Translations under genes and position numbers: made by a program
Shown here: piece after piece, positions 19,379 to 60,651 of the stretch
Numbering within the stretch: the first letter of the stretch is position 1
Layout: every line of letters begins with the position of its first letter
Notes under the pieces: generated by a model
The model's input: the letters and a program-made list of their open reading frames with translations, nothing else
The model's database searches: none
Told to the model about the DNA's origin: nothing
NCBI RefSeq assembly: GCF_900168115.1
Contig: NZ_FUZC01000010.1
Span: 62,001 to 126,000 of the forward strand
Direction: 5' to 3'
DNA length: 64,000 nucleotides
DNA from: Salegentibacter salinarum
GTDB taxonomy: Bacteria > Bacteroidota > Bacteroidia > Flavobacteriales > Flavobacteriaceae

Positions 19379-19456
19379 TCAGGCTTGGAGTATATGTTTG
19401 AAACTTTACTAAAAAGGCTTTCGGTTGAATTTATTTTAATCAAATTTTTCTATTCG

Positions 19457-19480
19457 CCTGTAATTTTACGATTTTACAGG
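19457..19480. terminator. Possible weak terminator or operator hairpin
   Basis: CCTGTAA (19457-19463) and TTACAGG (19474-19480) form a 7-bp inverted repeat just past the end of the barrel protein gene and upstream of nhaC. There is no clean T-tract directly after the stem on the minus strand. Confidence 0.3.
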
Positions 19481-19515
19481 AAAATGAGCAAGTTTTCTAT
19501 AAAACTATAAATTGA

Positions 19516-20094
19516 TTAAAATTTATATCCTACTCCAAGTTGAATTCCAAAGGTGGTAAGTTTTTGATGAAAGTTTTTCTCTTCAAACGGAATTACTGCA
19601 TACCTTCTAAAATTAGGATTTATGTAAACGTTGAAGTTATTAAACGCGTATTGAGCGCCAAGCCCAAAACCAACCCCAATTCCGGCCTGTGGATCTACAG
19701 ATTCACTTTCTGAACTCTGAAAATCCATTACAGGACCTCCATTTACAAAGAAATAGTCCAGGAAATTATAATTGGCAAAAATAGGAATAGAAGTGGTTTG
19801 CAATTCTTCAGAGCGTGTAGTTTGTTCCGGCATTGGTACCGAAGTTATCAATACATCTCCCCGCCAGTAATTCAGTCCGGTTTCCAGGGAAAGATTATCG
19901 GTCACCGCAAGTAAATATCGAAATCCCAATTCGTAGGAGTTTTCAATATCGGTACTAGCAGCGCCATCAAGGTCTTCGCCTCTCAATAAATCGCTGTTCG
20001 TAAATCCGTAATACAGCCTAACCTCATTCTGGGTTTGAGAAAAAGCGCTAAGGCTAAAAAATGTAATAAATAAGGGAAGTAATAGTTTTTTCAA
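19516..20094 (-). CDS. Outer-membrane beta-barrel protein
   Basis: The 192-residue protein has a signal peptide (MKKLLLPLFITFFSLSAFSQ) and alternating beta strands of an eight-stranded barrel of the OmpW/OmpX/PorT-like porin class. Recognisable strands are ENSYELGFRYLLAVTDNLSLETGLNYW near residues 50-76, IPIFANYNFLDYFFVNGGPVMDF, and FGLGAQYAFNNFNVYINPNFRRYAVIPF. The protein ends in GIQLGVGYKF with a terminal Phe, the outer-membrane assembly signal. There is no enzymatic motif; a structural or receptor role is likely. Monocistronic. Confidence 0.85.
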   Translation of the reverse strand: MKKLLLPLFITFFSLSAFSQTQNEVRLYYGFTNSDLLRGEDLDGAASTDIENSYELGFRYLLAVTDNLSLETGLNYWRGDVLITSVPMPEQTTRSEELQTTSIPIFANYNFLDYFFVNGGPVMDFQSSESESVDPQAGIGVGFGLGAQYAFNNFNVYINPNFRRYAVIPFEEKNFHQKLTTFGIQLGVGYKF

Positions 20095-20199
20095 AATTTT
20101 ATTTTTTGTGAATATACAAAAAATGAAAAGTCCGAAAATGTTTTCACCCTTTAACGATTTGATCTTCGGACATCCTTTTCTTCTAAACTATCTCCTCAT

Positions 20200-21405
20200 C
20201 TAATATCCCAATATCCCAACTTCTGTCATACAGGATTTCATCATTTTATAAGTTCGTTCAATATCATTATCCAAACCTATTGAGAAGCGAATTAAACCGT
20301 TACTTAAGCCCATTTCTTCCTGTTCTTCAATTGGAATTTCAGAAGAAGTGGAGCTTCCAGGAGCGCTAAACAGGGTTTTATAGAAACCTAAACTTACGGC
20401 GAGGTAACCCAGGTTTTTTTCCTGCATTAATTCCATTAGCGCATTGGCTTTATCCAGGCTCCCAACATCTACAGTTAATAAGCCGCCAAAACCATAATCT
20501 TCATTCATCATCCTTTTAAAGGTTTCGTGGCCCGAATGTTTTTTTAATCCAGGGTAAACCGTTCTTAAACCGTCTTCCTGGAATTTTTCAGCTAAAAACA
20601 TCGCATTATGGCTGTGCTGTTTTATTCTAATATGCAGCGTTCTCAAATTCTTTAAAACCGAAGCTGCCCGCATACTATCCATCGTTGGTCCCAACAGCAT
20701 ATTGGCGCCATCGTTGACGCTACGAAGTGCGTTGATGAAATCCTGGCTTCCGCAGGTAACGCCGCCGACGGTATCGCTGCTGCCATTGATGAATTTAGTT
20801 AAGCTATGAATTACCACATCTGCACCCCATTCTTTCGGACTAATTGAAAGTGGGGAAAACGTATTATCTACCACGAAAGTAAGTTGATGCTTTTTGGCGA
20901 TTTTAGCCAGCGCTTCAATATCGGCAACTTCCAACAACGGATTACTAACCGATTCACAATAAAGAACTTTGGTTTCCTTTGTGATCGCCGCTTCAACGCT
21001 TTTAAGATTAGTGATATCTACAAAAGATGTTTTAATATTGAATTTCGGAATAAAATTCTTCATAAAAGCATAGGTTCCACCATAAACTGTGCGGCTGGAA
21101 ATAATATGATCACCGGCCTTGCAAAGCTGAAGCAGGGCAGAAGTGATGGCGCCCATCCCACTGGCGGCCACATTGGCAGTTTCGGTACCTTCCATTGCGG
21201 CAAGCGCTTCGCCCAAATATAAATTTGAAGGTGAAGAATGCCTGGAGTAAAGGTAGCAACCCTCTGAATTTCCTTCAAAAGTATCGAACATGGTTTTTGC
21301 CGAAAGGAAAGTATAAGTAGAGGAATCGGAGATTGAAGGATTTACTCCCCCGAATTCACCAAAATACTGAAGGTCCTGGATATTATCTGCCGGTTTATAT
21401 TTCAT
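20200..21405 (-). CDS. Cys/Met-metabolism PLP enzyme, probably methionine gamma-lyase
   Basis: The 401-residue fold-type I PLP enzyme belongs to the trans-sulfuration family. The PLP lysine is in DVVIHSLTKFINGSSDTVGG near residue 210, and the phosphate-binding ASGMGAITSALLQLCKAGDHI lies near 83-103. The binding SRTVYGGTYAFM and the Arg-containing ending LIRFSIGLDN are also seen. It may cleave methionine to methanethiol, or act as a cystathionine gamma-lyase or synthase; the sequence alone does not separate these. The ATG at 21405 is preferred over the TTG at 21414. It is divergent from an Lrp/AsnC gene, which suggests control by an amino acid. Confidence 0.88.
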   Translation of the reverse strand: MKYKPADNIQDLQYFGEFGGVNPSISDSSTYTFLSAKTMFDTFEGNSEGCYLYSRHSSPSNLYLGEALAAMEGTETANVAASGMGAITSALLQLCKAGDHIISSRTVYGGTYAFMKNFIPKFNIKTSFVDITNLKSVEAAITKETKVLYCESVSNPLLEVADIEALAKIAKKHQLTFVVDNTFSPLSISPKEWGADVVIHSLTKFINGSSDTVGGVTCGSQDFINALRSVNDGANMLLGPTMDSMRAASVLKNLRTLHIRIKQHSHNAMFLAEKFQEDGLRTVYPGLKKHSGHETFKRMMNEDYGFGGLLTVDVGSLDKANALMELMQEKNLGYLAVSLGFYKTLFSAPGSSTSSEIPIEEQEEMGLSNGLIRFSIGLDNDIERTYKMMKSCMTEVGILGY

Positions 21406-21428
21406 CTTTATCAAATTTATAGTTCATT

Positions 21429-21459
21429 CAAACTTACATGTTAATAGAATTATAATCAA
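21429..21459 (-). promoter_or_regulatory. Promoter of the methionine gamma-lyase-like gene
   Basis: On the minus strand TTG (21459-21457) is followed after exactly 20 bases by TAAGTTTG (21436-21429). Both elements match the Bacteroidota consensus in full. The ATG is at 21405. Confidence 0.65.
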
Positions 21460-21468
21460 TGATTGATT
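21454..21468. promoter_or_regulatory. Palindrome overlapping the -33 element; candidate Lrp/AsnC operator
   Basis: AATCAATGATTGATT is a perfect 15-bp palindrome around a central G. It covers the -33 TTG of the lyase promoter in the divergent region shared with the Lrp/AsnC gene. AsnC-family proteins bind AT-rich palindromes of about 15 bp, so repression or activation from here is plausible. Confidence 0.5.
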
Positions 21469-21529
21469 CTTAATTCAGTAAATAAAACTATATAAACAGC
21501 ATATAATAGATTTATAATCTCTAAATGCT

Positions 21530-21537
21530 TATTTTCG
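21530..21537 (+). promoter_or_regulatory. Possible -7 box of the Lrp/AsnC gene
   Basis: TATTTTCG matches TAnnTTTG at seven of eight positions and lies about 25 bases before the ATG at 21564. No -33 TTG is seen. It supports the ATG at 21564 over the upstream start at 21525. Confidence 0.3.
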
Positions 21538-21563
21538 TAATTCATCCTAGAAAAATTTTCATT

Positions 21564-22022
21564 ATGAAATTAGACCAAAAAGATCTGCAAATCTTAAAAC
21601 ATCTTCAGCAGGATAGTAAAATGACGAATAAGGAGATTTCCAACAAGTTGAAACTTTCAGTTACAGCTGTTTTTGAAAGAATTAAACGCCTGGAACGAGA
21701 AAGAGTAATTTCTAGATATGTGGCACTTGTTTCTCCAGATAAAGTAGAAAAGAATTTTATGGTTTTTTGCCAGATAAAACTTATTCAGCATTCCCGGTCT
21801 TATTTAACGAAATTTGAAAGTGAAGTAACAAAACTCACTGAAGTTTTAGAATGCTATCACGTAAGTGGCGAATATGACTATATCTTAAAAGTTATTGTAA
21901 AAGATATGGAAGCTTACCGGGAATTCATGGTGACTAAACTCACTAATTTAGATCATATTGGCAGTACGCAAAGTACTTTTATTATAAGTCCGGTTAAAAG
22001 CACCACGGCCGTCCCTCTTTAA
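21564..22022 (+). CDS. Lrp/AsnC family transcriptional regulator
   Basis: The 152-residue protein opens with an N-terminal winged helix-turn-helix: LDQKDLQILKHLQQDSKMTNKEISNKLKLSVTAVFERIKRLERERVISRYVA (residues 2-53). A C-terminal RAM/AsnC ligand-binding domain follows (LTEVLECYHVSGEYDYILKVIVKDMEAYREFM, about 85-120). Such proteins form octamers, sense amino acids and usually regulate themselves and a neighbour. It is divergent from the methionine gamma-lyase-like gene and upstream of the amine/GABA cluster, so either may be its target. The start at MKLDQ is chosen because the domain begins there. Confidence 0.92.
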   Translation: MKLDQKDLQILKHLQQDSKMTNKEISNKLKLSVTAVFERIKRLERERVISRYVALVSPDKVEKNFMVFCQIKLIQHSRSYLTKFESEVTKLTEVLECYHVSGEYDYILKVIVKDMEAYREFMVTKLTNLDHIGSTQSTFIISPVKSTTAVPL

Positions 22023-22385
22023 TCATTCGGTTAAATTATTATTAAAATATTAAGAAAATCACAATTATTTTTTCATAAAGTATTTGTATTAAAATTTAAT
22101 TGAACGATTTGCATTAGCGCTTCCCGTGAATCTATAATTTATTGACTATTAATGAGATAAAAGGTTTTTAAGCTTTTGTTTTAAAGTAAGAATTCTTCAA
22201 ATTTTCTCTCCTTAAATCAGTGTCAGAAGCTCTTTCTGATTGGTTGTCAGTAAGAAAGCCGTGTGAAGTAAGAAAATATTATTGTATATTAACAAGCACC
22301 GAAAGAAGGTGGGGCTTTTTATTTATTACTTCCCGGCTTTTACAAGTTTTTAGATTAACCATTCAATTGAACAACCAGATATTTT
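22023..22385 (+). other. 363-bp non-coding region before the aminotransferase gene
   Basis: I see no convincing reading frame in this AT-rich gap. It holds a small hairpin around 22217-22240 (TCAGAA/TTCTGA) and a GC-richer hairpin followed by T-rich sequence at 22296-22322. No full TAnnTTTG box was found. The long leader could carry transcriptional control of the downstream cluster. Confidence 0.4.
22296..22322 (+). terminator. Possible attenuator in the aminotransferase leader
   Basis: CACC (22297-22300) pairs with GGTG (22308-22311) inside an imperfect longer stem (GCACC...GGTGGGGC), followed at once by CTTTTTATTTATT. It lies about 65 bases upstream of the start at 22386. The stem is short, so this is tentative. 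Confidence 0.3.
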
Positions 22386-23693
22386 ATGACTGAAGAGCAA
22401 ACTAAATCTCAGCAGCTCCTTGATAGGAGAATAAACATTGTCGCCAACGGAGTTGGTGTTTTCAATACAGCCACCGTTAAAAAAGCAAAAGGTGCAATAA
22501 TTACCGATGTAGACGGGAAAGAACATATAGATTTTGCCGGCGGGATTGGTGTGGTAAACGCAGGCCATTGTCCCGAACCTGTTGTGAAAGCTATACAGGA
22601 ACAGGCTGAAAAGTACTTACATACAAGTTTTAACGTAGTCACTTATGAACCTTATATTCAGCTCTGTGAAGAACTTGCAGAAATTCTTCCGCATGGGGAG
22701 AATACCAAAGCGATGCTTATTAGCACCGGCGCAGAAGCCGTAGAAAATGCTATTAAAATTGCCCGCCAGGCCACAAAAAGACCAGCTGTAATTTGTTTTA
22801 CCGAGGCATATCACGGTCGTACGCTTATGGGAATGAGTCTAACCAGTAAAGTTAACTACAAATTTTCTTCGGGGCCATTTGCTCCGGAAGTTTACCGAAT
22901 TCCTTTTCCGAATTTTTATAAATATCACGGTACGCAAAGTAGGGAAGAATTTGTGGAAACTGAGCTAAATAGGCTTAGGGAAAGCGCCCATAGTATGGTA
23001 GATATAAATAGCGTTGCAGCTATTATTGTTGAGCCAATTCAGGGAGAAGGTGGGTTTAACCCAATTCCTCAAAAATACCTTGAAGGACTGCGTACCTTTT
23101 GTGACGAACACGGGGTTTTATTGATTTTGGATGAAATTCAAAGTGGTTTTTGCCGTACGGGCCATTGGGCCAGCTGGCAGCATTTCGGGGTGCAACCTGA
23201 TATTAGCACTTATGCGAAATCTATGGGTTCCGGGCTTCCGATTGCCGCTGTACTTGGTAGAGGAGAAATTATGGATGCTGCCCAACCGGGCACTATTGGC
23301 GGTACTTATATAGGTAGCCCAGTTTGTTGCGCCGCGGCCCTCGCTACCATTCAACTAATGAAAGATGAAAACCTTAACGAGCGAGCAGTTTATATAGGTA
23401 AACTCATCACAGAAAGAATGGAAAACTTCAGGAAAGGATGTCCCGAAATTGGTGATGTAAGAGGATTAGGGGCTATGATTGGAATAGAGTTTATTGAGGA
23501 TAACGACCCAGGAAAACCTCATACAGAACTTTGCGCCAGGATTGTAAAAGGATGCGCAGAAGATGGTTTAATCCTTATAAGCGCCGGTACGTTTAAAAAT
23601 GTACTAAGAATATTATGCCCGCTTGTTATAACCGATGATCAACTTTATAGGGCGCTAGATATTCTGGAAAACCAAATAAGAATGCATACTTAA
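22386..23693 (+). CDS. gabT: 4-aminobutyrate/omega-amino-acid aminotransferase (class III)
   Basis: The 435-residue PLP class III aminotransferase carries the hallmark features STGAEAVENAIKIAR near residue 113 (phosphate binding), EAYHGRTLMGMSLTS near 141, ILDEIQSGFCRTG near 246 (the Asp that pairs with the PLP ring) and TYAKSMGSGLP with Lys278 as the Schiff-base lysine. The sequence is closest to GabT/DavT enzymes that convert GABA or 5-aminovalerate to the semialdehyde with 2-oxoglutarate. It heads the same-strand cluster that ends with a succinate-semialdehyde dehydrogenase, which supports a GABA or similar omega-amino-acid substrate. Confidence 0.92.
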   Translation: MTEEQTKSQQLLDRRINIVANGVGVFNTATVKKAKGAIITDVDGKEHIDFAGGIGVVNAGHCPEPVVKAIQEQAEKYLHTSFNVVTYEPYIQLCEELAEILPHGENTKAMLISTGAEAVENAIKIARQATKRPAVICFTEAYHGRTLMGMSLTSKVNYKFSSGPFAPEVYRIPFPNFYKYHGTQSREEFVETELNRLRESAHSMVDINSVAAIIVEPIQGEGGFNPIPQKYLEGLRTFCDEHGVLLILDEIQSGFCRTGHWASWQHFGVQPDISTYAKSMGSGLPIAAVLGRGEIMDAAQPGTIGGTYIGSPVCCAAALATIQLMKDENLNERAVYIGKLITERMENFRKGCPEIGDVRGLGAMIGIEFIEDNDPGKPHTELCARIVKGCAEDGLILISAGTFKNVLRILCPLVITDDQLYRALDILENQIRMHT

Positions 23694-23860
23694 ATTTTTC
23701 ACGTTGAATTTTCTATAAAGAAAATCCATTGAATAAGTGTGCTCATTTTTAACTAAAACTAATTGGCAGGTATATGATAGTAAAGTACGTAAGAGCAAGC
23801 TCACGGGTCATTCATTGAGAAGCATTGGTTAATTCCGCGGTAAGCCTCGGAGCATTTAAA

Positions 23861-23875
23861 ACTCGATTATCGAGT
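23861..23875. promoter_or_regulatory. ACTCGATTATCGAGT palindrome, copy 1 of a shared element
   Basis: A perfect 15-bp palindrome, which as RNA can form a CTCGA/TCGAG stem with a TTA loop. It lies 60 bp upstream of the amidohydrolase gene. The surrounding 24 bases (23854-23877) recur with one mismatch at 35639-35662, upstream of the NADH dehydrogenase gene. A CCG-GG/CC-CGG hairpin (about 23835-23850) precedes it. It is either a protein-binding site, a leader RNA element or the end of a short mobile repeat. Confidence 0.5.
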
Positions 23876-23934
23876 AAGTCGAATATATAAACCCGAGAAA
23901 ATATTTTCTACGGATAATAAGAAATAAAAAAAAT

Positions 23935-24867
23935 ATGAATCCATTTGCAATAGCAGGAATACAAATGAAGGTTTCCGCAGTCGCTTCGAATGTTGAAATG
24001 ATGAAGTTGAAACTTGATATCACCATGAGTCTTTACCCTTGGGTAGATATGGTGGTTTTTAGTGAATTATGCGGCTACGGCCCTTTAACCCATAATGCAC
24101 AGGAAATTCCTGGAGATTTTGAAAGGGAGATGCAGGCCGCGGCTAAGAAACATGGGGTTTGGCTATTACCGGGTTCTATTTTCGAAAAGAGCGAAGATAA
24201 AATCTATAATACCGCTACAGTAATTAATCCACAGGGAGAAATCGTAACGCGTTACAGGAAAATGTTTCCTTTTTATCCTTATGAAGTGGGAGTAACTCCT
24301 GGCTCTAATTTTTGTGTTTTCGATGTGCCGGGAATCGCAAAATTTGGAGTTTCTATTTGTTATGATATGTGGTTTCCGGAAACTGTGCGTACCCTCGCCG
24401 TTATGGGAGCAGAAGTAATTTTACACCCTACCATGACCGGTACTATAGACAGGGATATAGAATTATCCATTGTTAGAGCTATGGCCGCGGTGAATCAGTG
24501 TTACTTCTTTGATGTAAATGGTTTGGAATCTGGCGGTAATGGAAGGTCGCTGGTTTGTGGTCCCGATGGCCGCGTGATATACCAGGCCGAAGGAAATGAG
24601 GAAATTTTTCCGCTAGAGCTTAATATTAACAGGGTGAGAAGAAGTAGGGAACTCGGAGTTTTACGTTTGGGACAACCATTAAAAAGCTTTAGAGATCATA
24701 TAGGTGATTTCAATATTTATCAAAAAGATACTCAATTGCCTTACCTCAATTCGCTGGGGCCACTTATTAAGCCTACCAGGTTAGATAATCTTGCCAAGTT
24801 AAAAATGAAAGAACACGAATATGAGCCACCCGAAAATCCTACAGGATATAAAGGATTTGGAGCATAA
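23935..24867 (+). CDS. Nitrilase-superfamily carbon-nitrogen hydrolase (amidase)
   Basis: The 310-residue protein has the nitrilase catalytic triad: Glu44 (VVFSELCGYGP), Lys109 (RYRKMFPFYPYE) and Cys142 (GVSICYDMWFPE). It hydrolyses an amide or carbamoyl group. The sequence is of the aliphatic-amidase/N-carbamoylputrescine-amidase/5-aminovaleramidase sort, and the substrate cannot be decided. The catalytic domain spans about residues 3-270; the C-terminal 40 residues are extra. The neighbours (decarboxylase, aminotransferase, semialdehyde dehydrogenase) fit an amide intermediate in amine breakdown. The VOC gene starts 15 bp after its stop. Confidence 0.9.
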   Translation: MNPFAIAGIQMKVSAVASNVEMMKLKLDITMSLYPWVDMVVFSELCGYGPLTHNAQEIPGDFEREMQAAAKKHGVWLLPGSIFEKSEDKIYNTATVINPQGEIVTRYRKMFPFYPYEVGVTPGSNFCVFDVPGIAKFGVSICYDMWFPETVRTLAVMGAEVILHPTMTGTIDRDIELSIVRAMAAVNQCYFFDVNGLESGGNGRSLVCGPDGRVIYQAEGNEEIFPLELNINRVRRSRELGVLRLGQPLKSFRDHIGDFNIYQKDTQLPYLNSLGPLIKPTRLDNLAKLKMKEHEYEPPENPTGYKGFGA

Positions 24868-24882
24868 TTAAAAAACAAAACT

Positions 24883-25296
24883 ATGGGAGGAGCATCACAA
24901 AAGAAGAAAAAGGAAAAACAGGAAGAAACCGTAAAAGATTTTATTAGCTGGTTTGAAATTCCTGCAATTAATTTCCAGCAAGCGGTAGATTTTTATAACC
25001 GCATTTTTAAAATGGATATGGAAACTCAATTTGACGGGAATTATGCGATGGCATTTTTTCCCGCGGCAAAAGGTATTGGTGGCGCTATTGTTACAGGCCC
25101 AAATTCCATTCCGGGAATAATAGGTCCGTTGCTATACCTTAATGCCGGCAAAGACCTTAACCGCATTTTAAATAGAGTTGAAGGAGCCGGAGGAAGAATT
25201 GTGATGACCAAAACCCTGATTAATCCTGAATCTGGTTATTTCGCAATTTTTATTGATTCTGAAGGAAATAAACTCGCTTTACACTCAAAAGATTAA
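24883..25296 (+). CDS. VOC family protein with lysine-rich N-terminus
   Basis: The 137-residue single glyoxalase-like domain (SWFEIPAINFQQAVDFYNRIFKMDME near residues 22-47; YFAIFIDSEGNKLALHSKD at the end) follows a short basic lead containing KKKKEKQ. It resembles the CFP-30/YdhR-like VOC proteins that often have no known substrate; metal-ligand residues are not obvious. It sits between the amidohydrolase and the decarboxylase (2 bp to the latter), so it is surely co-transcribed. A role as an accessory or aldehyde-handling protein of the pathway is inference. Confidence 0.85.
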   Translation: MGGASQKKKKEKQEETVKDFISWFEIPAINFQQAVDFYNRIFKMDMETQFDGNYAMAFFPAAKGIGGAIVTGPNSIPGIIGPLLYLNAGKDLNRILNRVEGAGGRIVMTKTLINPESGYFAIFIDSEGNKLALHSKD

Positions 25297-25298
25297 TT

Positions 25299-28055
25299 AT
25301 GCCAGAAAAAAAATTAGATAGTGCACATTATTATAATATCGCTCAACTAAGAGTAGAATCCTGGAACACCTTAAAAAGTGAGTCGACTAAACTTCATTCT
25401 TCGGCCCGGGGCTCGGAAGACGAAAAAAACTACAAGAAAAATCTTCAACAGCTTTTTAAGGAATTGGAGGGTGTAGAATGCTTTTTTGCATTTCCGGGTT
25501 TGTCCTGTATTGAGAACCTAAGGGAAATGTTAAGAAGACAGGAACATACCGCTCTTTCCCATAAAATTGCAGAAATCACCAAAAACCTGGTAAGTGACCG
25601 GTATAGAAGTAATCCTGATTTTTTAGAAGATGAAGATCCCGGAGCCGAGCTGACGGATAAAGGAGAATATACAGAAGTAGCCAAAAAAAATTATTTTGAA
25701 GTGATGTTTGTAGAAGATATTTCTCAGGCAGAAGAAAATAAACTCAGGCACGATCTCAAAGAAATGCGCCTTTCTAACGAACAATTCGCTTATGGAATTG
25801 TGGTACAGCGTTCTTTTGAAGATGCTTTAATTGCGCTTCAGTTTAATTTTAATATTCAGGCGGTTGTAATTCGTTATGCGCCTCCTTACCATTCTAAAAA
25901 GATTACTCCGGTAATTAAACCATTTATTCAGAATATTTTAAAACTGAAGTTTGGTTCCAAACCACCTACCGAGTTAGGCCCGATTTTAGGAACCATGGTA
26001 AAAAAATTCAGGCCAGAACTGGATACCTATTATGTTACCGATACGGCTTTAGGTAATTTAAAGGATAGCACTTTAAAAACCTTTAGAAGGATTTTTTATA
26101 GAACTGAAGATTTACAGGAATTACACCTTACCGTAATTAGAGGAATAAGCGAACGCTATGAGACTCCATTTTTTTCGGCATTAAAAGACTATAGTAAAAA
26201 ACCAACCGGAATTTTTCACGCGATGCCAATTTCGCGAGGAAATTCGGTTTTTAAATCCAGATGGATCAACGATTTTGGTAATTTCTACGGCAGGAATATG
26301 TTCCTGGCAGAAACATCTTCTACCACCGGGGGGTTAGATTCTTTATTGCAACCAACCGGTTCATTGAAAAAAGCGCAGCAAAAGGCCAGTGATGCTTACG
26401 GCTCACGAAATACATATTTTGTAACCAATGGTACTTCTACCGCCAATAAAATAGTAGTGCAGGCTTTAGTGAAACCGGGAGATGTAATTTTAATAGACAG
26501 GGACTGCCATAAATCGCATCATTATGGTTTGGTATTGGCAGGAGCTTATCCGGTTTATCTGGATTCTTATCCTATTGAAGAATATTCTATGTATGGTGCA
26601 GTGCCGCTGGAACAGATAAAGGAAAAATTACTTCAGTTAAAAAAAGCCGGAAGGTTAAGCCTGGTTAAAATGCTTTTGTTAACCAATTGTACTTTTGACG
26701 GACTCGTGTATAACGTAGAAAAAGTAATGCAGGAAATACTGGCCATTAAACCAGATATGGTTTTTCTATGGGATGAAGCCTGGTTTGCATTTGCCGGTTT
26801 CACCTATAATTATAAACAAAGAACCGGAATGTTTGTTGCGCAGAAATTGTTTAATAAATACCAAAGCGATAGTTACCGGGAAGAATACAATGCGCATATT
26901 AAAAACCTTAAAAAGAATGAGATTCCGGGCCTCCCAAATCCGGATGAAGTGCGGATCAGGGTTTATTCTACGCAAAGTACCCATAAAACGCTAAGTAGCT
27001 TCAGGCAGGGTTCTATGATTCATATTTGGGACGAAGATTTCCGTAAAAAAAGTGAAAATACTTTTATGGAGGCTTACATGACGCATACTTCAACTTCTCC
27101 TAATTACCAAATGCTCGCTTCGCTGGATGTGGGAAGAAGACAGGTACAATTTGAAGGCTATGAGCTGGTAGAAAAGAGTATAGAGCTGGCTATGGTGTTA
27201 AGGGCCAAGGTGAACGACCATCCTAAATTGAAGAAATATTTTGATGTTCTAACTATAGGAAATTTTATTCCAAAGCAACACCGCAAATCGGGCATAAAAG
27301 AATATTACAATTCAAAGGAAGGTTGGAATAGGATGGAAACCGCCTGGGAACAGGATGAGTTTGTTTTAGATCCAACCAAAATTACCCTACACATTGGTAG
27401 AACCGGTGTAGACGGAGATACTTTTAAGAACCGTTATTTAATGGATAAATTTAATATTCAGATTAATAAAACTTCCAGAAATACGGTTTTGTTTATGACC
27501 AATATTGGAACTACAAGAGGGAGTGTAACCTATTTAACCAATGCATTATTAAAAATAGCCGATGAACTGGACCAGGAATTTAAAACCCTGAGCCAGGAAG
27601 AGGGGAATAATCGTAGAGATAGAATTAAATCTTTAACTGAAGATTTTCCGCCATTGCCAGATTTTAGTTATTTCCATCATTCTTTTCAGGCAGTTCCCGG
27701 AGTTCCAGGTGGGAATATTAGAGAGGCATTTTTCCTCGCTTACAACGAAGAGAATTATGAATATATGGCGCTTACAGGTTGCTTACCGGCGATGGAAGAA
27801 AACCGGATCCTGGTAGCTTCATCTTTTATAATACCTTATCCACCGGGATTTCCGGTGCTTGTTCCCGGACAGGTAGTAAGTAAAGAAATAATAAGATTTC
27901 TTACTGCATTAGATGTATCTGAAATTCACGGCTACCGGGCAGACCTCGGACTAAGAATTTTTAAAGATAACGTCTTGAATCGCCAGAAAACGGTGAGTTC
28001 TATGGGCTCTATGGGGAACAATTCGAAGAAAAAGATCACTAACTTAAAAAATTAA
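25299..28055 (+). CDS. Large Orn/Lys/Arg decarboxylase family PLP enzyme
   Basis: The 918-residue group III PLP decarboxylase carries FVTNGTSTANKIVVQALVKPGD near residues 368-390, the PLP-stacking His in DRDCHKSHHYG near 400, WDEAWFAFAG near 490 and the Schiff-base Lys563 in STQSTHKTLSSFRQGSM. Relatives make cadaverine, putrescine or agmatine. Bacterial family members are about 710-760 residues with the lysine near 355-390, so this one has an N-terminal part about 190 residues longer, including a receiver-like wing. The substrate is unknown. It is tightly packed between the VOC and ATP-grasp genes (2 and 4 bp). Confidence 0.9.
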   Translation: MPEKKLDSAHYYNIAQLRVESWNTLKSESTKLHSSARGSEDEKNYKKNLQQLFKELEGVECFFAFPGLSCIENLREMLRRQEHTALSHKIAEITKNLVSDRYRSNPDFLEDEDPGAELTDKGEYTEVAKKNYFEVMFVEDISQAEENKLRHDLKEMRLSNEQFAYGIVVQRSFEDALIALQFNFNIQAVVIRYAPPYHSKKITPVIKPFIQNILKLKFGSKPPTELGPILGTMVKKFRPELDTYYVTDTALGNLKDSTLKTFRRIFYRTEDLQELHLTVIRGISERYETPFFSALKDYSKKPTGIFHAMPISRGNSVFKSRWINDFGNFYGRNMFLAETSSTTGGLDSLLQPTGSLKKAQQKASDAYGSRNTYFVTNGTSTANKIVVQALVKPGDVILIDRDCHKSHHYGLVLAGAYPVYLDSYPIEEYSMYGAVPLEQIKEKLLQLKKAGRLSLVKMLLLTNCTFDGLVYNVEKVMQEILAIKPDMVFLWDEAWFAFAGFTYNYKQRTGMFVAQKLFNKYQSDSYREEYNAHIKNLKKNEIPGLPNPDEVRIRVYSTQSTHKTLSSFRQGSMIHIWDEDFRKKSENTFMEAYMTHTSTSPNYQMLASLDVGRRQVQFEGYELVEKSIELAMVLRAKVNDHPKLKKYFDVLTIGNFIPKQHRKSGIKEYYNSKEGWNRMETAWEQDEFVLDPTKITLHIGRTGVDGDTFKNRYLMDKFNIQINKTSRNTVLFMTNIGTTRGSVTYLTNALLKIADELDQEFKTLSQEEGNNRRDRIKSLTEDFPPLPDFSYFHHSFQAVPGVPGGNIREAFFLAYNEENYEYMALTGCLPAMEENRILVASSFIIPYPPGFPVLVPGQVVSKEIIRFLTALDVSEIHGYRADLGLRIFKDNVLNRQKTVSSMGSMGNNSKKKITNLKN

Positions 28056-28059
28056 AATT

Positions 28060-29847
28060 ATGGAATCTAAGAAACCAAAAGCTTCCAATAAAAAAGGAGC
28101 AACTAATACAAAAAAAACCACGCCTAAAAAAGAACCGGTATCCCCGGAACGCAGCGCTAAAAAAGACAGAAAATTAAAGGTTACCGAAGAAAAGCCCCTA
28201 AAGGGGAAGAAATCTGTGCCTTTAGATTCTACGGCGCAGCAAGGCAAAGCTCCGGCTTCTTCCACTACTAAAAAGAAAAAAGCTACTACAGCTTCCGGCG
28301 CTAAAAAGAAACCTGCAAAAAGCAAAAAAGTGGTTGGAGCCAAACAGGTGAAAGTCGATAAATCAGTAGCTAAAGTTCCCGCAAAATCGAAAAGTAAGAA
28401 TACGCTGGATGGAGTTTCAGACATTAGAAGATCTTTTCACAAGAACGAAGAACCTTTATATTTTATAAGTGCAACCAACTTCAACCTTTTAGGTGCTGAT
28501 GAGTGGATTAAAGGATTTAAATTTATTTGCCATATCGAATGTTTTGATGGTCTTCATCCCAATGTTTTTTCACCTAAAACCGAAATTCCTCACGATGATT
28601 TTGAAGGAATTGAAGACATAAATAATTATTTATTACAACATCCCGAGGTTCAGGATTATCTAAAAACAAGATCTGTAGACGGAAGGGCAGGGAAAGCGAT
28701 GTTCCTTATGTTTAATGAGAAAACCGAGGAGCTTGCAGAAAAACTCGGCCTGGAAATCATGTTTCCAAAAGCCGAAATGCGAACTTTTCTGGATAACAAA
28801 GTAAATACGAACCGAATTGCAGAAAAAGCCGGGGTGGCCTGCGTGCCTTATGTACTTACCAAAGTAAATAATTATGAGCATTTAAGGGAGGTTTCTAATC
28901 ATCTTGGAAACGAGCTGGTTATCCAAACTCCTTTTGGTGATTCTGGACATACTACTTTCTTTATTTCAAATGAGGAAGAGTATGAAAAACACTCCGAAGA
29001 GATTGAAAAAGAAGAAGAAGTTAAGGTAATGAAGCGTATTCGTTGCCGAGGCTCTGCCATAGAAGCTTGTGTGACAAGACATGGAACAATTGTGGCGCCG
29101 CTTATGACAGAATTGGTAGGTTTTAAAGAACTTACTCCTTATGAAGGTGGTTGGTGTGGTAACGAGATTTATCCCAATGCCTTTACACCCGAGTTAAGGG
29201 AGAAAGCAATAGAATATACCCAGTTATTCGGGAATCAGTTGCGGGAAGAAGGTTATAAGGGATATTTTGAACTCGATTTCTTAATAGATCAGGATAATGG
29301 TGAGATCTATTTAGGGGAATTGAATCCGAGGGTAACAGGAGCCAGTTCTATCACCAATCACGCTGTATTTGCGCTTGCAGATGCACCATTATTTGTTTTT
29401 CATATTCTGGAATGGATGGATATTGATTATGATCTTGATATTGAAGCCATAAATAATCGATGGGCCCGCCAGGAGAATATAGATGGTTGGAGCCAGCTTA
29501 TTATAAAACATACCGAAGACACCATAGAATATGTGACAAATGCACCAAACTCTGGTATTTACAGAATGTATGATACCGGCCATATTCAGTTTGACAGGAT
29601 GGATACTCACCGTAGGGCCGTTGAAAATGAAAATGAAGCCTTTTTCTTACGAATAACCAGGAAAGGAGATTATTTATATGAAGGAGCAGATATGGGAATT
29701 CTGGTAAGCCGCGGACGTATGATGACAGATGATTTTAGGCTAAATAACAGGGCTAAACATTGGATAAAAGCCATTAGGGGCCAATACACTTCTGAAATAG
29801 TTGAGGACAAGAAAAAGCCAAAATTATCAGGAACTTTAACTAAATAA
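28060..29847 (+). CDS. ATP-grasp ligase with a histone-like lysine-rich N-terminal tail
   Basis: The protein has 595 residues. The first 120 or so are disordered and very basic: runs of Lys, Ala, Ser, Thr and Pro such as TTKKKKATTASGAKKKPAKSKK, like the tails of histone H1 or AlgP. From about 125 a biotin-carboxylase/carbamoyl-phosphate-synthase-like ATP-grasp enzyme follows. It shows FLDNKVNTNRIAEKAGVACVPYVLTKV near 245-270, the Lys/Glu ATP-binding strands around 285-330, and GYFELDFLIDQDNGEIYLGELNPRVTG near 405-430 (magnesium ligands). Such enzymes join a carboxylate to an amine through an acyl phosphate. Here it may cap an amine made by the preceding decarboxylase (inference). Confidence 0.88.
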   Translation: MESKKPKASNKKGATNTKKTTPKKEPVSPERSAKKDRKLKVTEEKPLKGKKSVPLDSTAQQGKAPASSTTKKKKATTASGAKKKPAKSKKVVGAKQVKVDKSVAKVPAKSKSKNTLDGVSDIRRSFHKNEEPLYFISATNFNLLGADEWIKGFKFICHIECFDGLHPNVFSPKTEIPHDDFEGIEDINNYLLQHPEVQDYLKTRSVDGRAGKAMFLMFNEKTEELAEKLGLEIMFPKAEMRTFLDNKVNTNRIAEKAGVACVPYVLTKVNNYEHLREVSNHLGNELVIQTPFGDSGHTTFFISNEEEYEKHSEEIEKEEEVKVMKRIRCRGSAIEACVTRHGTIVAPLMTELVGFKELTPYEGGWCGNEIYPNAFTPELREKAIEYTQLFGNQLREEGYKGYFELDFLIDQDNGEIYLGELNPRVTGASSITNHAVFALADAPLFVFHILEWMDIDYDLDIEAINNRWARQENIDGWSQLIIKHTEDTIEYVTNAPNSGIYRMYDTGHIQFDRMDTHRRAVENENEAFFLRITRKGDYLYEGADMGILVSRGRMMTDDFRLNNRAKHWIKAIRGQYTSEIVEDKKKPKLSGTLTK

Positions 29848-29930
29848 TATGTTGGGATTTGTGGGAGTAATAGGAATTAAAACTATTTTGCCACATTAAT
29901 AAATCAATATTATTTTAAAAACCATTCTAA

Positions 29931-31181
29931 ATGCAGTTACACTTTAATGCTATTTCTGAACCCGGAAAACCGGGTTCCAAATGGCAAAAATTATATAATA
30001 CTCACTGGCCCGCTTATAAAAGCTGGCTTAATTCAAAAGGAACAACCAATTACCCAGATCTTAAAACATCGCAAGAAGCACTTAAAAAGTATATGCCAGA
30101 GGTTTGGCCTACCTACCAGCGTTTATGCAAACTTGCAAAAGGAGATAAGGTAGCGGCACGTTTTTTAACAGGCTTTCAGCCTCCTGCTTATATAAGTGGC
30201 TGCTCACAAGCAGTTACTACAGGAGAAGATATTCAGTTGGTTAGAAATTACGATTTCCATCCAGATTTAATGGAAGGAACGCAATTGCTAACCTCATGGA
30301 ATGGCAAAAAAGTAATTGCTACCAGCGATTGCCTTATTGGGGTTGTAGACGGAATGAACGAAGATGGCCTGGCCATTTCGCTTACTTTTGGAGGACGAAA
30401 AGAGGTAGGAGTAGGTTTTGGGATTCCATTTATTTTGCGTTATGTTTTAGAATTTTGTAGTGATGTTGAAGAAGCTGTTGCAGCTTTAATCAGGATTCCT
30501 TCGCATATGTCTTACAACGTAACCGTTGTGGATAAAACCGGAAAATTTAAAACCGTACAACTGGCACCGGATAAAACACCACTGGTTACTGATGCGGCTT
30601 TTACAACAAACCATCAGGGAACAATAGACTGGCCCGAAAATGCGGCTTTTAATAAAACCCGGGAACGCTCTTCTTTTCTGAATAAAATGTTGTCAGTCAA
30701 AGGAGTGAATTCCACTAAGGTGGCCGATGCTTTTCTAAAGGCGCCGCTTTATAATACTAAATTTAAGGAAGGTTTTGGAACTTTATTTACCTCGGTTTAT
30801 CGACCCTTAGAAGGAAAAGTAGAACTTCGCTGGCCTGAAACTTCGGTTCAACAAAGTTTTGAAAACTTTCAGGAGGTTTATAAGCTCATAAATTACGAAC
30901 CGGCTCAGGTTGCAACTGAATGGTGGAACCAGGATGCCGTAGAAGTGGCTCGAACAGTAGAAGATCCGTTTGAAGAGCAATACGCTGAAAATGTAGATTG
31001 GCAGGAAACTGTTACCGAAATTATGGTAAATGCCATGGCTCAGGCTCATCCATCCACAAATGAGCGAGAACTTGAAAAATTAAGAGGAAAAATAATTAAT
31101 AAAGGAGAAGTGTCCTGGCAGGCAGTAGCCGGTTTCTGGAGTAAAATGGGAACAGGTTATGCCGATTCCTGGAGGAGTTAG
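29931..31181 (+). CDS. C45-family self-processing Ntn hydrolase/acyltransferase
   Basis: The 416-residue protein resembles acyl-CoA:6-aminopenicillanate acyltransferase-like Ntn hydrolases. The expected Gly-Cys processing site is in ISGCSQAV with Cys91 as the future N-terminal nucleophile. It is followed by LVRNYDFHPDL and SDCLIGVVDGMNEDGLAISLTFGGR, typical of the family. The first 90 residues would be the pro-segment. No signal peptide is seen, so it is cytosolic. Members cleave or form amide bonds of small molecules. In this cluster it could remove the acyl group put on by the ATP-grasp enzyme, as PuuD does in E. coli (inference). It starts 83 bp after the ligase and is followed by a terminator. 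Confidence 0.87.
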   Translation: MQLHFNAISEPGKPGSKWQKLYNTHWPAYKSWLNSKGTTNYPDLKTSQEALKKYMPEVWPTYQRLCKLAKGDKVAARFLTGFQPPAYISGCSQAVTTGEDIQLVRNYDFHPDLMEGTQLLTSWNGKKVIATSDCLIGVVDGMNEDGLAISLTFGGRKEVGVGFGIPFILRYVLEFCSDVEEAVAALIRIPSHMSYNVTVVDKTGKFKTVQLAPDKTPLVTDAAFTTNHQGTIDWPENAAFNKTRERSSFLNKMLSVKGVNSTKVADAFLKAPLYNTKFKEGFGTLFTSVYRPLEGKVELRWPETSVQQSFENFQEVYKLINYEPAQVATEWWNQDAVEVARTVEDPFEEQYAENVDWQETVTEIMVNAMAQAHPSTNERELEKLRGKIINKGEVSWQAVAGFWSKMGTGYADSWRS

Positions 31182-31209
31182 GCATTTCTTTTAAATAATT
31201 TTCTTAAGG

Positions 31210-31262
31210 ACCTGGTGCTATAAATAATGGATTATCTCCTATTTATTTCACCAGGTTTTTTA
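31210..31262 (+). terminator. Rho-independent terminator after the C45 hydrolase gene
   Basis: ACCTGGTG (31210-31217) pairs with CACCAGGT (31249-31256), extended inside by ATAAATA/TATTTAT, and is followed by TTTTTT. It splits the dehydrogenase gene from the main operon, at least partly. Confidence 0.8.
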
Positions 31263-31317
31263 GTTAAAAATTCTTAGAAGTAATTCTAATTTAATACTCC
31301 ATAAAAAATAAAATACA

Positions 31318-32676
31318 ATGGAATTTTATAGCACAAACCCCTACAATGGGAAACAAGTTGGAAAATATACGGCTCAAACTAAAGAGGAAACCACGGTTGT
31401 ATTAAATAATTCAGGAAAAGCCTTTAGAGAATGGAAAAAAACACCACTTTCTTACCGCACTGAACTTTTGCAGAAAGCCGGGCAGGTTTTAAGGGATAAT
31501 GTAGAGGAGTATGCGAAAATGATTACTCAGGAAATGGGGAAACCAATTTCTGAATCCAGGGCTGAGGTTAATAAATGCGCCTGGGTATGTGATTATTATG
31601 CTGAGAATGCTGATGAATTTCTCGCTTCGGCAGAGATAAAAACAGATGCTACCCATAGTTATGTTAGGCACGACCCAATAGGGAGTGTTTTTGCTATTAT
31701 GCCGTGGAATTTTCCATTCTGGCAGGTTTTTAGATTTGCAGCACCGACGCTTACCGCCGGAAATACCGGGATATTAAAGCACGCCCCTAATGTATTTGGC
31801 TGTGCCTTGAAGATAGAAGAGGTTTTTGAAAAAGCAGGATATCCCAAAGGCGTTTTTCAGAATTTAATTGTGCATCACGATCAAACCGAAATGATCATTG
31901 CACACGATGCAGTCCAGGCGGTTACTTTAACCGGAAGTGAAGCTGCAGGATCGGCGGTGGCAGAACTTTCGGGAAAATATATAAAAAAGAGTCTACTGGA
32001 ATTAGGCGGTAATAATTCATTTATTGTTTGGGAAGATGCAGATATAGATCGCGCCGTTAAAACAGCAGTTTCCGCCAGGATGTTAAACTGCGGACAAAGC
32101 TGTATCGCGGCGAAGCGTTTTATTCTGCTGGAAGGAATTTACGATGAATTTATTTCAAAATTTAAGACTGCAGTGAACGAATTAAAACCCGGAGACACTA
32201 TGGACGATAGCACGCAGGTAGGAGCGCTTGCGAGAAAAGATCTGGCAGATCAACTTCAAAGGCAGGTAAAAAGATCTTTAGAACAGGGAGCTGAACTATT
32301 ACTTGGCGGCGAACAGAATAATTGTTTTCATCAGCCAACCATTCTTGGAAATGTTAAGCCGGGAATGGCCGCTTTTGACGAAGAAACCTTTGGCACTCTC
32401 GCGGCAATTATTAAAGCACAGAACATAGAGGAAGCTTTTGAGCTTTCAGAAAAATCAACATTTGGTTTGGGCACCACAGTTTTTACCAAAAATATCGAAA
32501 AAGCTATGGAAATGGCCGGTAGTGTAAGTGATGGCGCTTACTTTGTAAATGAACTGGTAAAATCTAATCCCCGACTTCCCTTTGGAGGAACCAAGCGTTC
32601 CGGCTACGGTCGGGAATTAGCAAAAGAAGGAATGATGGAGTTTGTTAATAAGAAAACAGTTTATGTTAAAGCCTAA
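31318..32676 (+). CDS. NAD(P)-dependent succinate-semialdehyde dehydrogenase
   Basis: The 452-residue aldehyde dehydrogenase oxidises a semialdehyde to the acid. The catalytic Cys262 is in CGQSCIAAKR and the general-base Glu228 in SLLELGGNN. The cofactor region MPWNFPFWQVFRFAAPTLTAGNT (residues about 123-146) and the C-terminal PFGGTKRSGYGRELAKEGMMEFVNKKTV match the short Sad/GabD-like subgroup. It would take the semialdehyde made by the aminotransferase at the head of the cluster into the TCA cycle. It has its own start region after a terminator. Confidence 0.92.
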   Translation: MEFYSTNPYNGKQVGKYTAQTKEETTVVLNNSGKAFREWKKTPLSYRTELLQKAGQVLRDNVEEYAKMITQEMGKPISESRAEVNKCAWVCDYYAENADEFLASAEIKTDATHSYVRHDPIGSVFAIMPWNFPFWQVFRFAAPTLTAGNTGILKHAPNVFGCALKIEEVFEKAGYPKGVFQNLIVHHDQTEMIIAHDAVQAVTLTGSEAAGSAVAELSGKYIKKSLLELGGNNSFIVWEDADIDRAVKTAVSARMLNCGQSCIAAKRFILLEGIYDEFISKFKTAVNELKPGDTMDDSTQVGALARKDLADQLQRQVKRSLEQGAELLLGGEQNNCFHQPTILGNVKPGMAAFDEETFGTLAAIIKAQNIEEAFELSEKSTFGLGTTVFTKNIEKAMEMAGSVSDGAYFVNELVKSNPRLPFGGTKRSGYGRELAKEGMMEFVNKKTVYVKA

Positions 32677-45600: not shown

Positions 45601-45612
45601 CTTGTTAAATTT

Positions 45613-46752: not shown

Positions 46753-46774
46753 ATTTAAGTAATTTTTTGATTGG

Positions 46775-48010: not shown

Positions 48011-48028
48011 TATCTTCTGTAGCTTCTC

Positions 48029-49042: not shown

Positions 49043-49119
49043 AAAATACGTTTAAGAGTTACTGGAATGTGATTTTACTGATAGTTTAAGATCTTAAAAG
49101 TATACTTTTTTTTAAAGAA

Positions 49120-49150
49120 GCAAAATTATAACCATAAATTTATATATTTG
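49120..49150. promoter_or_regulatory. Divergent promoter region of the sugar locus
   Basis: Two exact -7 boxes point away from each other: TAATTTTGC on the minus strand (49128-49120) for the isomerase operon and TATATTTG on the plus strand (49143-49150) for the GMC gene. Neither has a clear -33 TTG, which may mean an activator is needed. Confidence 0.4.
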
Positions 49151-49191
49151 GAGGCATTCGATTAACTAAATTATTAATTAATTATAGTACA

Positions 49192-60511: not shown

Positions 60512-60590
60512 TGAGAAAAACATGTTTGAAGGGAGGCTATTTTAACTGGCAATTTAAACAAATTTCAAGAAGAATTTAGGAGTCTAAAAG

Positions 60591-60629
60591 AAAAGAGACT
60601 AAAAATGCAATGCATTGATAGCCTCTTTT
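60591..60629 (-). terminator. Terminator after susD
   Basis: AAAAGAGACTA (60591-60601) pairs with TAGCCTCTTTT (60619-60629) with one mismatch. On the minus strand the stem ends in a T-rich stretch. It separates susCD from the VCBS genes, perhaps lowering but not ending their transcription. Confidence 0.65.
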
Positions 60630-60651
60630 TTAATAAGCCTAATTTAAGTAA

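What the first reader, a model, noticed from the sequence alone, without database searches (positions are those of the whole stretch)
22386..32676. A possible new amine-to-GABA pathway: decarboxylase, ATP-grasp capping ligase, Ntn uncapping hydrolase, aminotransferase and semialdehyde dehydrogenase in one cluster
Seen: seven same-strand genes (GabT-like aminotransferase, nitrilase, VOC, Orn/Lys/Arg decarboxylase, ATP-grasp, C45 Ntn hydrolase, SSADH-like), five of them 2-83 bp apart. Known: in E. coli putrescine is capped with glutamate (PuuA), oxidised (PuuB, PuuC), uncapped (PuuD) and finished by PuuE/GabD. Inference: here the ATP-grasp enzyme and C45 hydrolase may take the places of PuuA and PuuD with unrelated folds, and the decarboxylase makes the amine in situ. 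The nitrilase could instead point to a DavA-like 5-aminovaleramide step from lysine. No amine oxidase of the PuuB kind is in the cluster, which is the weak point.
Basis: partly seen in the sequence, partly recalled or inferred. Interest (0 to 1): 0.78.

Follow-up and report, generated by a model that had tools for sequence, protein, structure and literature searches.

The report
Conserved amide-linked route to GABA
A set of five enzymes, kept together in very distant bacteria and not described in the papers searched, appears to make the small molecule GABA through an amide-bound intermediate and to burn it to succinate, using a decarboxylase whose substrate pocket is not that of the lysine or arginine enzymes it resembles.

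Summary
The seven genes are real and strongly conserved. In 56 of 56 homologous loci with enough flank, aminotransferase (GabT), nitrilase (Nit), decarboxylase (DC) and ATP-grasp (GRASP) lie in the same order; ALDH is in 49, VOC in 48, C45 in 41. GRASP, DC and GabT occur in the same 11 of 60 relatives. A remote locus keeps GabT-ALDH-Nit-DC-GRASP reordered, without C45. The core is five enzymes; C45 is optional (0 of 18 carrier genomes lacking it in the cluster hold a full-length copy).

GabT and ALDH resemble GABA transaminase and succinate-semialdehyde dehydrogenase. DC keeps its PLP residues, but lysine decarboxylase's Glu526 is Asn in 88 of 88 homologues and a second Glu is Gln: probably no diamine is made. 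Proposal: GRASP makes an amide, DC decarboxylates it, Nit hydrolyses it to GABA, GabT/ALDH finish (confidence 0.3). Capped-ornithine and plain GABA-shunt readings remain open.

The parts
22386..23693 (+). GabT: class III aminotransferase of the GABA transaminase type (core)
   Evidence: TIGR00700 496.4 bits, just under cut-off 506.65; NF005376 516 under 676. Keeps residues aligned to E. coli GabT Ile50, Arg141 and Glu211. At E 1e-120 found in 11 of 60 relatives, the same 11 as the ATP-grasp.
23935..24867 (+). Nit: carbon-nitrogen hydrolase (nitrilase superfamily amidase), core; Glu44, Lys109 and Cys142 conserved in at least 96% of 77 rows
   Evidence: PF00795; conservation; present in 56 of 56 loci.
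24883..25296 (+). VOC-fold protein (accessory)
   Evidence: PF00903; 48 of 56 loci.
25299..28055 (+). DC: 918-aa PLP decarboxylase of the Orn/Lys/Arg decarboxylase fold, relative of M. tuberculosis Rv2531c (core)
   Evidence: PF01276; best PDB match 9n0n, 776 bits. PLP Lys563 conserved; Asn723, Gln721, Arg727 and Gln858 in place of the residues of two basic amino acid decarboxylases.
26985..26987 (+). codon of PLP lysine Lys563 (LdcI Lys367)
   Evidence: alignment
27465..27467 (+). codon of Asn723, aligned to the proposed substrate-binding Glu526 of lysine decarboxylase
   Evidence: Asn in 88 of 88 homologues; role of Glu526 from docking and a cited proposal in PMC5607190 (passage)
28060..29847 (+). 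GRASP: ATP-grasp ligase, PRK06524 family, named 'biotin carboxylase' in NCBIfam (core); residues 1-108 are a low-complexity extension
29931..31181 (+). C45 autoproteolytic Ntn amidohydrolase/acyltransferase (optional)
30201..30203 (+). codon of Cys91, predicted nucleophile and new N-terminus of the mature C45 chain
   Evidence: Invariant in 37 of 37 aligned; model residue 91 aligns with the start of penicillin acylase and bile salt hydrolase chains.
31318..32676 (+). ALDH: succinate-semialdehyde dehydrogenase type (core)
   Evidence: Best PDB matches are SSADH 4it9 (417 bits) and Sad (406 bits); replaced in L138 by a GabD-type SSADH over its cut-off.
21525..22022 (+). Lrp/AsnC regulator next to the cluster, possible local regulator
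   Evidence: PF01037; in 9 of 56 loci only.

Best explanation
A five-enzyme pathway that forms GABA through an amide intermediate and oxidises it to succinate. Proposed order: (1) GRASP uses ATP to join a carboxylate to an amine, most likely the gamma-carboxyl of glutamate to an unidentified amine X. (2) DC decarboxylates the amino acid part of this neutral conjugate, giving 4-aminobutanoyl-X. (3) Nit hydrolyses the amide to GABA and releases X for reuse; C45, where present, does the same hydrolysis or passes the acyl group on. (4) GabT makes succinate semialdehyde. (5) ALDH makes succinate. Shown by computation: the conserved core, the family of each enzyme, the GABA and SSA character of steps 4 and 5, the changed DC pocket, the optional C45. 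Inferred: the order of steps 1 to 3, glutamate as acyl donor, and X.
For: GabT, Nit, DC and GRASP in 56 of 56 loci with enough flank, same order. Same 11 of 60 relatives for GRASP, GabT and DC. Remote locus L166 with GabT-ALDH-Nit-DC-GRASP in a new order. Steps 4 and 5; in L138 the ALDH is replaced by a GabD-type SSADH, 717 bits against cut-off 646. The DC pocket has lost both conserved Glu (Asn723 in 88 of 88, Gln858 in 87 of 87 rows with a residue) and gained Gln721 (88 of 88) and Arg727 (86 of 88), while the PLP residues stay; Glu526 is a proposed substrate-binding residue of lysine decarboxylase (PMC5607190, passage). No glutamate decarboxylase of family TIGR01788 over cut-off in 60 relatives; the window genome has no match. 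Each of the five core enzymes is used once and no amine oxidase is needed. Recalled precedent, not from a call: butirosin BtrJ (ATP-grasp) loads glutamate by its gamma-carboxyl and BtrK decarboxylates it in bound form.
Against: It costs ATP to make GABA from glutamate, and X would only be a carrier; no metabolic reason is known. In three Pseudomonadota plasmid records (L141, L146, L155) GRASP, C45 and a nitrilase sit in an arginine catabolic cluster without DC, though one of these plasmids carries DC elsewhere. Cupriavidus necator has Nit-GRASP-C45 with no DC beside them, and the rhizobial clusters have DC-GRASP-C45 without the nitrilase. DC relatives with the same pocket residues sit beside antiporters without GRASP. 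The GRASP model cannot tell ligase from carboxylase relatives. No substrate was tested.
Confidence: 0.3

Rival explanations
1. Capped basic amino acid route, close to the reader's Puu analogy: GRASP caps the side-chain amine of ornithine (or lysine) before decarboxylation; DC makes a mono-capped diamine; GabT and ALDH act on the capped amine and aldehyde; Nit (with C45) uncaps to GABA, which the same GabT and ALDH finish.
For: The neutral DC pocket also suits a capped side chain. Arginine/ornithine genes lie beside GRASP-C45 in Pseudomonadota plasmids: racemase-arginase fusion, 5-guanidino-2-oxopentanoate decarboxylase and agmatinase, AstA twice near the C. necator cluster. The ATP-grasp PylC, among the nearly tied fold matches, was solved with L-lysine. 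C45's best fold match is isopenicillin N acyltransferase, which by recall removes an aminoadipyl side chain, a homologue of gamma-glutamyl.
Against: No further family, hence no oxidase, recurs with the cluster in more than 10 of 80 loci. GabT and ALDH keep GABA and SSA features and would have to serve twice. The window genome has an ornithine aminotransferase far over its cut-off, so ornithine has another outlet. C45 is dispensable.
Confidence: 0.25
2. A GABA shunt in one operon: DC is a new kind of glutamate decarboxylase acting on free glutamate, GabT and ALDH finish to succinate, and GRASP, Nit and C45 make and break a GABA conjugate (a homocarnosine-like dipeptide or amide).
For: No TIGR01788 glutamate decarboxylase over cut-off in 60 relatives; 1 of 60 (G052) has a match under it. 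DC relatives with the same pocket residues lie beside aspartate-alanine antiporters, one also beside aspartate 4-decarboxylase and an HdeA-family chaperone, which suggests an acidic substrate.
Against: Making and hydrolysing a conjugate in one operon would be a futile cycle. The antiporter-linked DCs form their own clade on a long branch and differ at further positions, so their substrate may differ. Nit is as strictly conserved as DC in the 56 loci.
Confidence: 0.2
3. Ordinary basic amino acid catabolism: DC is a lysine, ornithine or arginine decarboxylase and the other genes are loosely associated.
For: Fold and family of DC.
Against: The position of Glu526 is Asn in 88 of 88; the cluster is too strictly conserved; the homologous gene of M. 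tuberculosis was not crucial for growth on arginine (PMC4569260, passage with that section heading).
Confidence: 0.08
4. Dav-like route with a PLP oxygenase: DC uses O2 to turn a (capped) amino acid into the carboxamide one carbon shorter, Nit hydrolyses the amide, C45 removes the cap.
For: Nit is of the amidase kind and near DC in 56 of 56 loci. Cap15 is a PLP carboxamide-forming monooxygenase-decarboxylase (PMC7497351, passages), and arginine to 4-guanidinobutyramide to acid is a known sequence (PMC5082578, passages).
Against: Cap15 is not of the Orn/Lys/Arg decarboxylase family as far as I recall. Nit also goes with GRASP-C45 where DC is not adjacent.
Confidence: 0.07

Closest known systems
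E. coli Puu pathway (putrescine to GABA through gamma-glutamylated intermediates; recalled)
   Same: ATP-made amide early, amide hydrolysis later, then GABA transaminase and SSADH.
   Different: ATP-grasp in place of a glutamine synthetase fold; nitrilase and optional C45 in place of a glutamine amidotransferase fold; no amine oxidase in the cluster; a decarboxylase with a non-basic pocket.
Pseudomonas DavBATD lysine pathway (recalled)
   Same: Nitrilase-fold amidase, then GABA-type transaminase and semialdehyde dehydrogenase.
   Different: No flavin lysine 2-monooxygenase; PLP decarboxylase and ATP-grasp instead.
Classical GABA shunt (GAD, GabT, GabD; recalled)
   Same: GabT and SSADH type enzymes.
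   Different: No TIGR01788 glutamate decarboxylase in the window genome; extra ATP-grasp and amidase.
M. tuberculosis Rv2531c (PDB 9n0n, 9n0o)
   Same: Same decarboxylase subfamily, 776 bits over 887 residues; same Asn and Gln changes.
   Different: Ile in place of Arg727; its activity is unknown (PMC12910592, passages); its gene surroundings were not examined here.
Butirosin BtrJ/BtrK (recalled)
   Same: ATP-grasp ligase and PLP decarboxylase acting on glutamate bound through its gamma-carboxyl.
   Different: Carrier-protein thioester and antibiotic biosynthesis, other decarboxylase fold.
Isopenicillin N acyltransferase (peptidase family C45)
   Different: 14% identity; substrate unknown here.

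Membership tests
Puu-type gamma-glutamylated putrescine pathway | glutamine-synthetase-fold ligase (PuuA) | tested here: not met
   The ligase of the cluster is an ATP-grasp protein.
Puu-type gamma-glutamylated putrescine pathway | FAD amine oxidase (PuuB) in the cluster | tested here: not met
   None among the 10 window proteins scanned from 17891 to 32673; beyond the seven no family recurs in more than 10 of 80 loci. An oxidase elsewhere in the genome was not sought.
Puu-type gamma-glutamylated putrescine pathway | PuuD-type glutamine amidotransferase-fold hydrolase in the cluster | tested here: not met
   Hydrolases are nitrilase and C45.
Puu-type gamma-glutamylated putrescine pathway | GABA transaminase (PuuE/GabT) at the end | tested here: met
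   Best PDB matches E. coli GabT, then PuuE, with substrate residues kept; the curated cut-off is missed narrowly.
DavBATD lysine pathway | flavin lysine 2-monooxygenase DavB in the cluster | tested here: not met
   No such gene among the 10 proteins scanned.
DavBATD lysine pathway | 5-aminovaleramide amidase activity of the nitrilase | not testable with these tools
   Only the fold and catalytic triad are seen.
Orn/Lys/Arg decarboxylases acting on basic amino acids | PLP-binding residues and lysine | tested here: met
   LdcI positions 220, 221, 245, 330, 333, 364, 366 and 367 conserved.
Orn/Lys/Arg decarboxylases acting on basic amino acids | acidic residue for the distal amine (LdcI Glu526) | tested here: not met
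   Asn in 88 of 88.
Biotin carboxylase (the NCBIfam name of NF005096) | score over the family cut-off | tested here: met
   823.4 over 684 bits.
Biotin carboxylase (the NCBIfam name of NF005096) | Gln-Val-Glu after the E-x-N-x-R motif, taken by recall as the bicarbonate site | tested here: not met
   4mv1 reads EMNTRIQVEH where GRASP reads ELNPRVTGAS (a weak alignment).
Succinate-semialdehyde dehydrogenase | curated family cut-offs | tested here: inconclusive
   TIGR01780 333 under 646, NF006915 496 under 730, though the top PDB matches are SSADH.
C45 peptidases | family cut-off and Cys nucleophile | tested here: met
   NF040521 167.4 over 85; Cys91 in 37 of 37.
Classical GABA shunt | canonical glutamate decarboxylase (TIGR01788) | tested here: not met
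   0 of 60 relatives over cut-off, no match in the window genome; 1 of 60 under the cut-off. Other decarboxylase families were not sought.

The most novel reading that the evidence does not exclude
An undescribed branch of central amino acid metabolism in which decarboxylation takes place on an amide conjugate built by an ATP-grasp ligase, by a subfamily of the Orn/Lys/Arg decarboxylase fold that has given up basic substrates. This would give GABA in bacteria without a canonical glutamate decarboxylase and a first lead to the unknown activity of the Rv2531c subfamily. In its boldest form DC is a PLP oxygenase that makes a carboxamide for the nitrilase.
Probability: 0.45. Interest if true: 0.8.

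Novelty: new variant of a known kind. Interest (0 to 1): 0.62.

Why it matters
In the genomes compared, the genes come and go as one unit. If the reading is right, this is a route to GABA without glutamate decarboxylase and without amine oxidase, it gives a function to an ATP-grasp family now labelled biotin carboxylase, and it makes the unsolved specificity of the Rv2531c-type decarboxylases testable in a marine bacterium not known (by recall) as a pathogen.

Tried and rejected
Puu-like uncapping by C45: rejected as a core step, because 15 of 56 clusters lack it and 0 of 18 genomes behind 19 loci without it carry a full-length C45; 2 of 18 have weak partial matches, E 9.5e-7 and 1.2e-5 (completeness of these genomes is not told, several are MAGs). 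On the GRASP tree C45 presence changes 11 times by parsimony, 4 of them forced by starred branches; shuffled labels need 13.3 on average, so it is hardly clustered (54 of the 56 loci, L063 and L088, both with C45, missing from my hand-typed list).

A PuuD-like protein in the C45 slot: looked for; the family found there (c15; 7 of 80 loci) was judged by eye not to be an amidase and was not scanned.

My earlier idea that the D-amino acid route of Shinella replaces DC: weakened, since the like plasmid of 'Roseateles' XES5 carries a DC of the GRASP-linked clade elsewhere.

The fold search for GRASP gave BC first by Foldseek and PurK, CPS, BC, PylC and amino acid ligases within about 1.5 Z by VIA-align, so it says nothing on the reaction. 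Mirror-tree correlations run from 0.41 to 0.80 (Spearman) and were not used further. In the DC tree Rv2531c joined the antiporter clade with a long-branch warning. Two other phyla are nearly empty: 2 of 297 genomes at E 1e-100, 1 over the cut-off, and 1 of 132. A strict motif search for the C45 nucleophile matched only 32 of 60; the alignment shows the Cys in 37 of 37. Paper searches for the cluster and for butirosin gave no description; the library is open-licence PMC only.
Full report
Observation. The seven ORFs exist at the stated coordinates on one strand, with gaps of 241, 15, 2, 4, 83 and 136 bases. Pfam and NCBIfam confirm class III aminotransferase, CN hydrolase, VOC, Orn/Lys/Arg decarboxylase, ATP-grasp, C45 and aldehyde dehydrogenase. 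The genus is Salegentibacter by inference: G004, 'same genus', has the cluster on a contig of 117,892 bases, the length of the Salegentibacter agarivorans contig of L060.

Conservation. Of these, 56 have at least 6.5 kb before and 3.5 kb after the ATP-grasp gene. In those 56: GabT 56, Nit 56, DC 56, GRASP 56 (by construction), ALDH 49, VOC 48, C45 41, Lrp 9, and the order GabT-Nit-DC-GRASP on one strand holds in 56 of 56. Record titles name Bacteroidota, Ignavibacteria, Balneolia, a Calditrichaeota and an Acidobacteria bin (several are MAGs). In 60 relatives, GRASP over its cut-off, GabT at E 1e-120 and DC at E 1e-40 are in the same 11 genomes and in no other. In 296 Bacteroidota genomes GRASP is over cut-off in 4 and DC is present in 5; the fifth DC touches a contig end with Nit and GabT beside it. 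A remote locus (L166; GRASP 47%, DC 47%, Nit 55% identical; GRASP under the family cut-off, 587 of 684 bits, and flagged with one TAG in the match) has GabT-ALDH-Nit-DC-GRASP in another order and no C45. The cassette therefore has a core of five enzymes, though ALDH is missing from 7 of 56 loci.

The end of the pathway. GabT is nearest E. coli GabT, then PuuE, in the PDB and keeps the residues aligned to GabT Ile50, Arg141 and Glu211 (the roles of these positions are recalled). It scores 496.4 against a cut-off of 506.65. ALDH is nearest SSADH 4it9 and Sad but under the curated cut-offs. In L138 the slot holds a GabD-type SSADH over its cut-off, the one match at E 1e-150 in that genome; the other 14 of 15 genomes searched there have none. 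In three other remote loci (L130, L135, L139) the ALDH is of a less certain type. The window genome has six class III aminotransferases at E 1e-20; the five others are ornithine aminotransferase, BioA and HemL, each over its cut-off, and two ArgD-like proteins under theirs.

The decarboxylase. DC's nearest solved relative is M. tuberculosis Rv2531c, whose activity is unknown (PMC12910592, passages seen). I aligned 73 cluster DCs of over 700 aa (78 of the 80 loci have a DC hit; shorter ones were dropped) plus the window's, 7 plasmid DCs next to GRASP, 2 other plasmid DCs, 4 plasmid DCs next to AspT antiporters, Rv2531c, and two basic amino acid decarboxylases as printed: 9e0m (inducible lysine decarboxylase, taken as LdcI) and 6q6i (biodegradative arginine decarboxylase). 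PLP residues are kept. LdcI Glu526, a proposed substrate site (PMC5607190, passage), is Asn723 in 88 of 88; LdcI position 524 is Gln721 in 88 of 88; position 530 is Arg727 in 86 of 88 (Ile in Rv2531c); the Glu of the PGE motif is Gln858 in 87 of 87 rows with a residue there. Both basic enzymes have Glu at both sites; no ornithine enzyme was aligned. A free diamine product is therefore doubtful for the whole subfamily. The AspT-linked DCs form their own clade (100/100 support).

GRASP and Nit. The ATP-grasp family is labelled biotin carboxylase, but where carboxylases read Gln-Val-Glu after the E-x-N-x-R motif it reads Thr-Gly-Ala. Its model is moderate (pLDDT 69.2), and PurK, CPS, BC, PylC and amino acid ligases nearly tie as fold matches, so the reaction is not settled by fold. 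Nit keeps Glu44, Lys109 and Cys142.

Other contexts. In plasmids GRASP was found in 32 records, 24 with at least 80% of the query. Regions read: Roseobacter ponti gabT, nitrilase, DC, GRASP, C45, peptide ABC importer; Shinella, 'Roseateles' XES5 and Sinorhizobium RAC02 with GRASP-C45 inside an arginine set: permease, an agmatinase over TIGR01230, a 5-guanidino-2-oxopentanoate decarboxylase over its cut-off, D-amino acid dehydrogenase, and a fusion of an ornithine racemase-like domain (393 bits under cut-off 480) with a partial arginase match; Rhizobium DC-GRASP-C45 with peptide importer, amidase and beta-lactamase-fold hydrolase; C. necator Nit-GRASP-C45 near two AstA genes.

Reading. With GabT and ALDH taken as GABA and SSA enzymes, the other three core enzymes should lead to GABA. 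The series ligase, decarboxylase, amidase does this with each enzyme used once and no oxidation step: amide of glutamate, decarboxylated amide, GABA. This is my choice at 0.3. Capping of ornithine or lysine before decarboxylation (0.25) explains the arginine contexts better but needs GabT and ALDH twice. A plain GABA shunt with a new glutamate decarboxylase and a side role for GRASP and Nit (0.2) also fits. None of these was tested by experiment, and the amine X is unknown.

Known or new. Searches of the open-licence library found no description of the cluster or of PRK06524; subscription papers were not searched. The logic (make an amide, process, hydrolyse, finish as GABA) is that recalled for the Puu pathway; the enzymes, the place of the decarboxylation and the absence of an oxidase differ. 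I file it as a new variant of a known kind, not as a member of the Puu, Dav or GAD pathways, each of which fails a tested defining feature.

Noticed in passing
28060-28383: The first 108 codons of GRASP encode a lysine-rich low-complexity extension present in Salegentibacter and near kin but absent from L011, L032 and L033, which start at the conserved core.
   Followed up: partly
L150, L151, L152, L147: DC relatives beside aspartate-alanine antiporters (L151 also aspartate 4-decarboxylase and an HdeA-family chaperone; L147 SSADH and aminotransferase) look like an acid-resistance decarboxylase system.
   Followed up: partly
L146:15782-17569: A 595-aa fusion of an ornithine racemase-like domain with a partial arginase match, in an arginine catabolic cluster.
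   Followed up: no
L084, L092, L096, L099, L127 (and L101, L105 further downstream): A recurring protein of about 240 aa, not scanned against any library, lies between GRASP and ALDH, or near, where C45 is missing.
   Followed up: no
L083, L096, L099, L101, L105, L109, L115: A Crp/Fnr-like regulator (by eye) and a small protein precede the cluster in these seven loci, in place of the Lrp gene of the window.
   Followed up: no
L087 and L100: Two C45 genes in tandem in both Brumimicrobium clusters.
   Followed up: no
G012:C10:88213-90963 and G578:C6:144877-146268: The DC match in one congener contains a TAA and the remote GRASP match a TAG; only noted.
   Followed up: no
20200-21414 and 17891-19378: A methionine gamma-lyase-like gene divergent from the Lrp gene (in 10 of 80 loci), and an NhaC antiporter over its cut-off that also scores as ArcD-like under its cut-off, stay with the cluster only in Salegentibacter and near kin.
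   Followed up: partly
44548-50892: Two xylose-isomerase-like TIM barrel proteins, a nucleoside symporter-family protein and a GMC oxidoreductase in one stretch.
   Followed up: no
53890-62241: Two long FG-GAP/ASPIC-UnbV proteins next to a SusD-family gene, likely a polysaccharide uptake locus.
   Followed up: no
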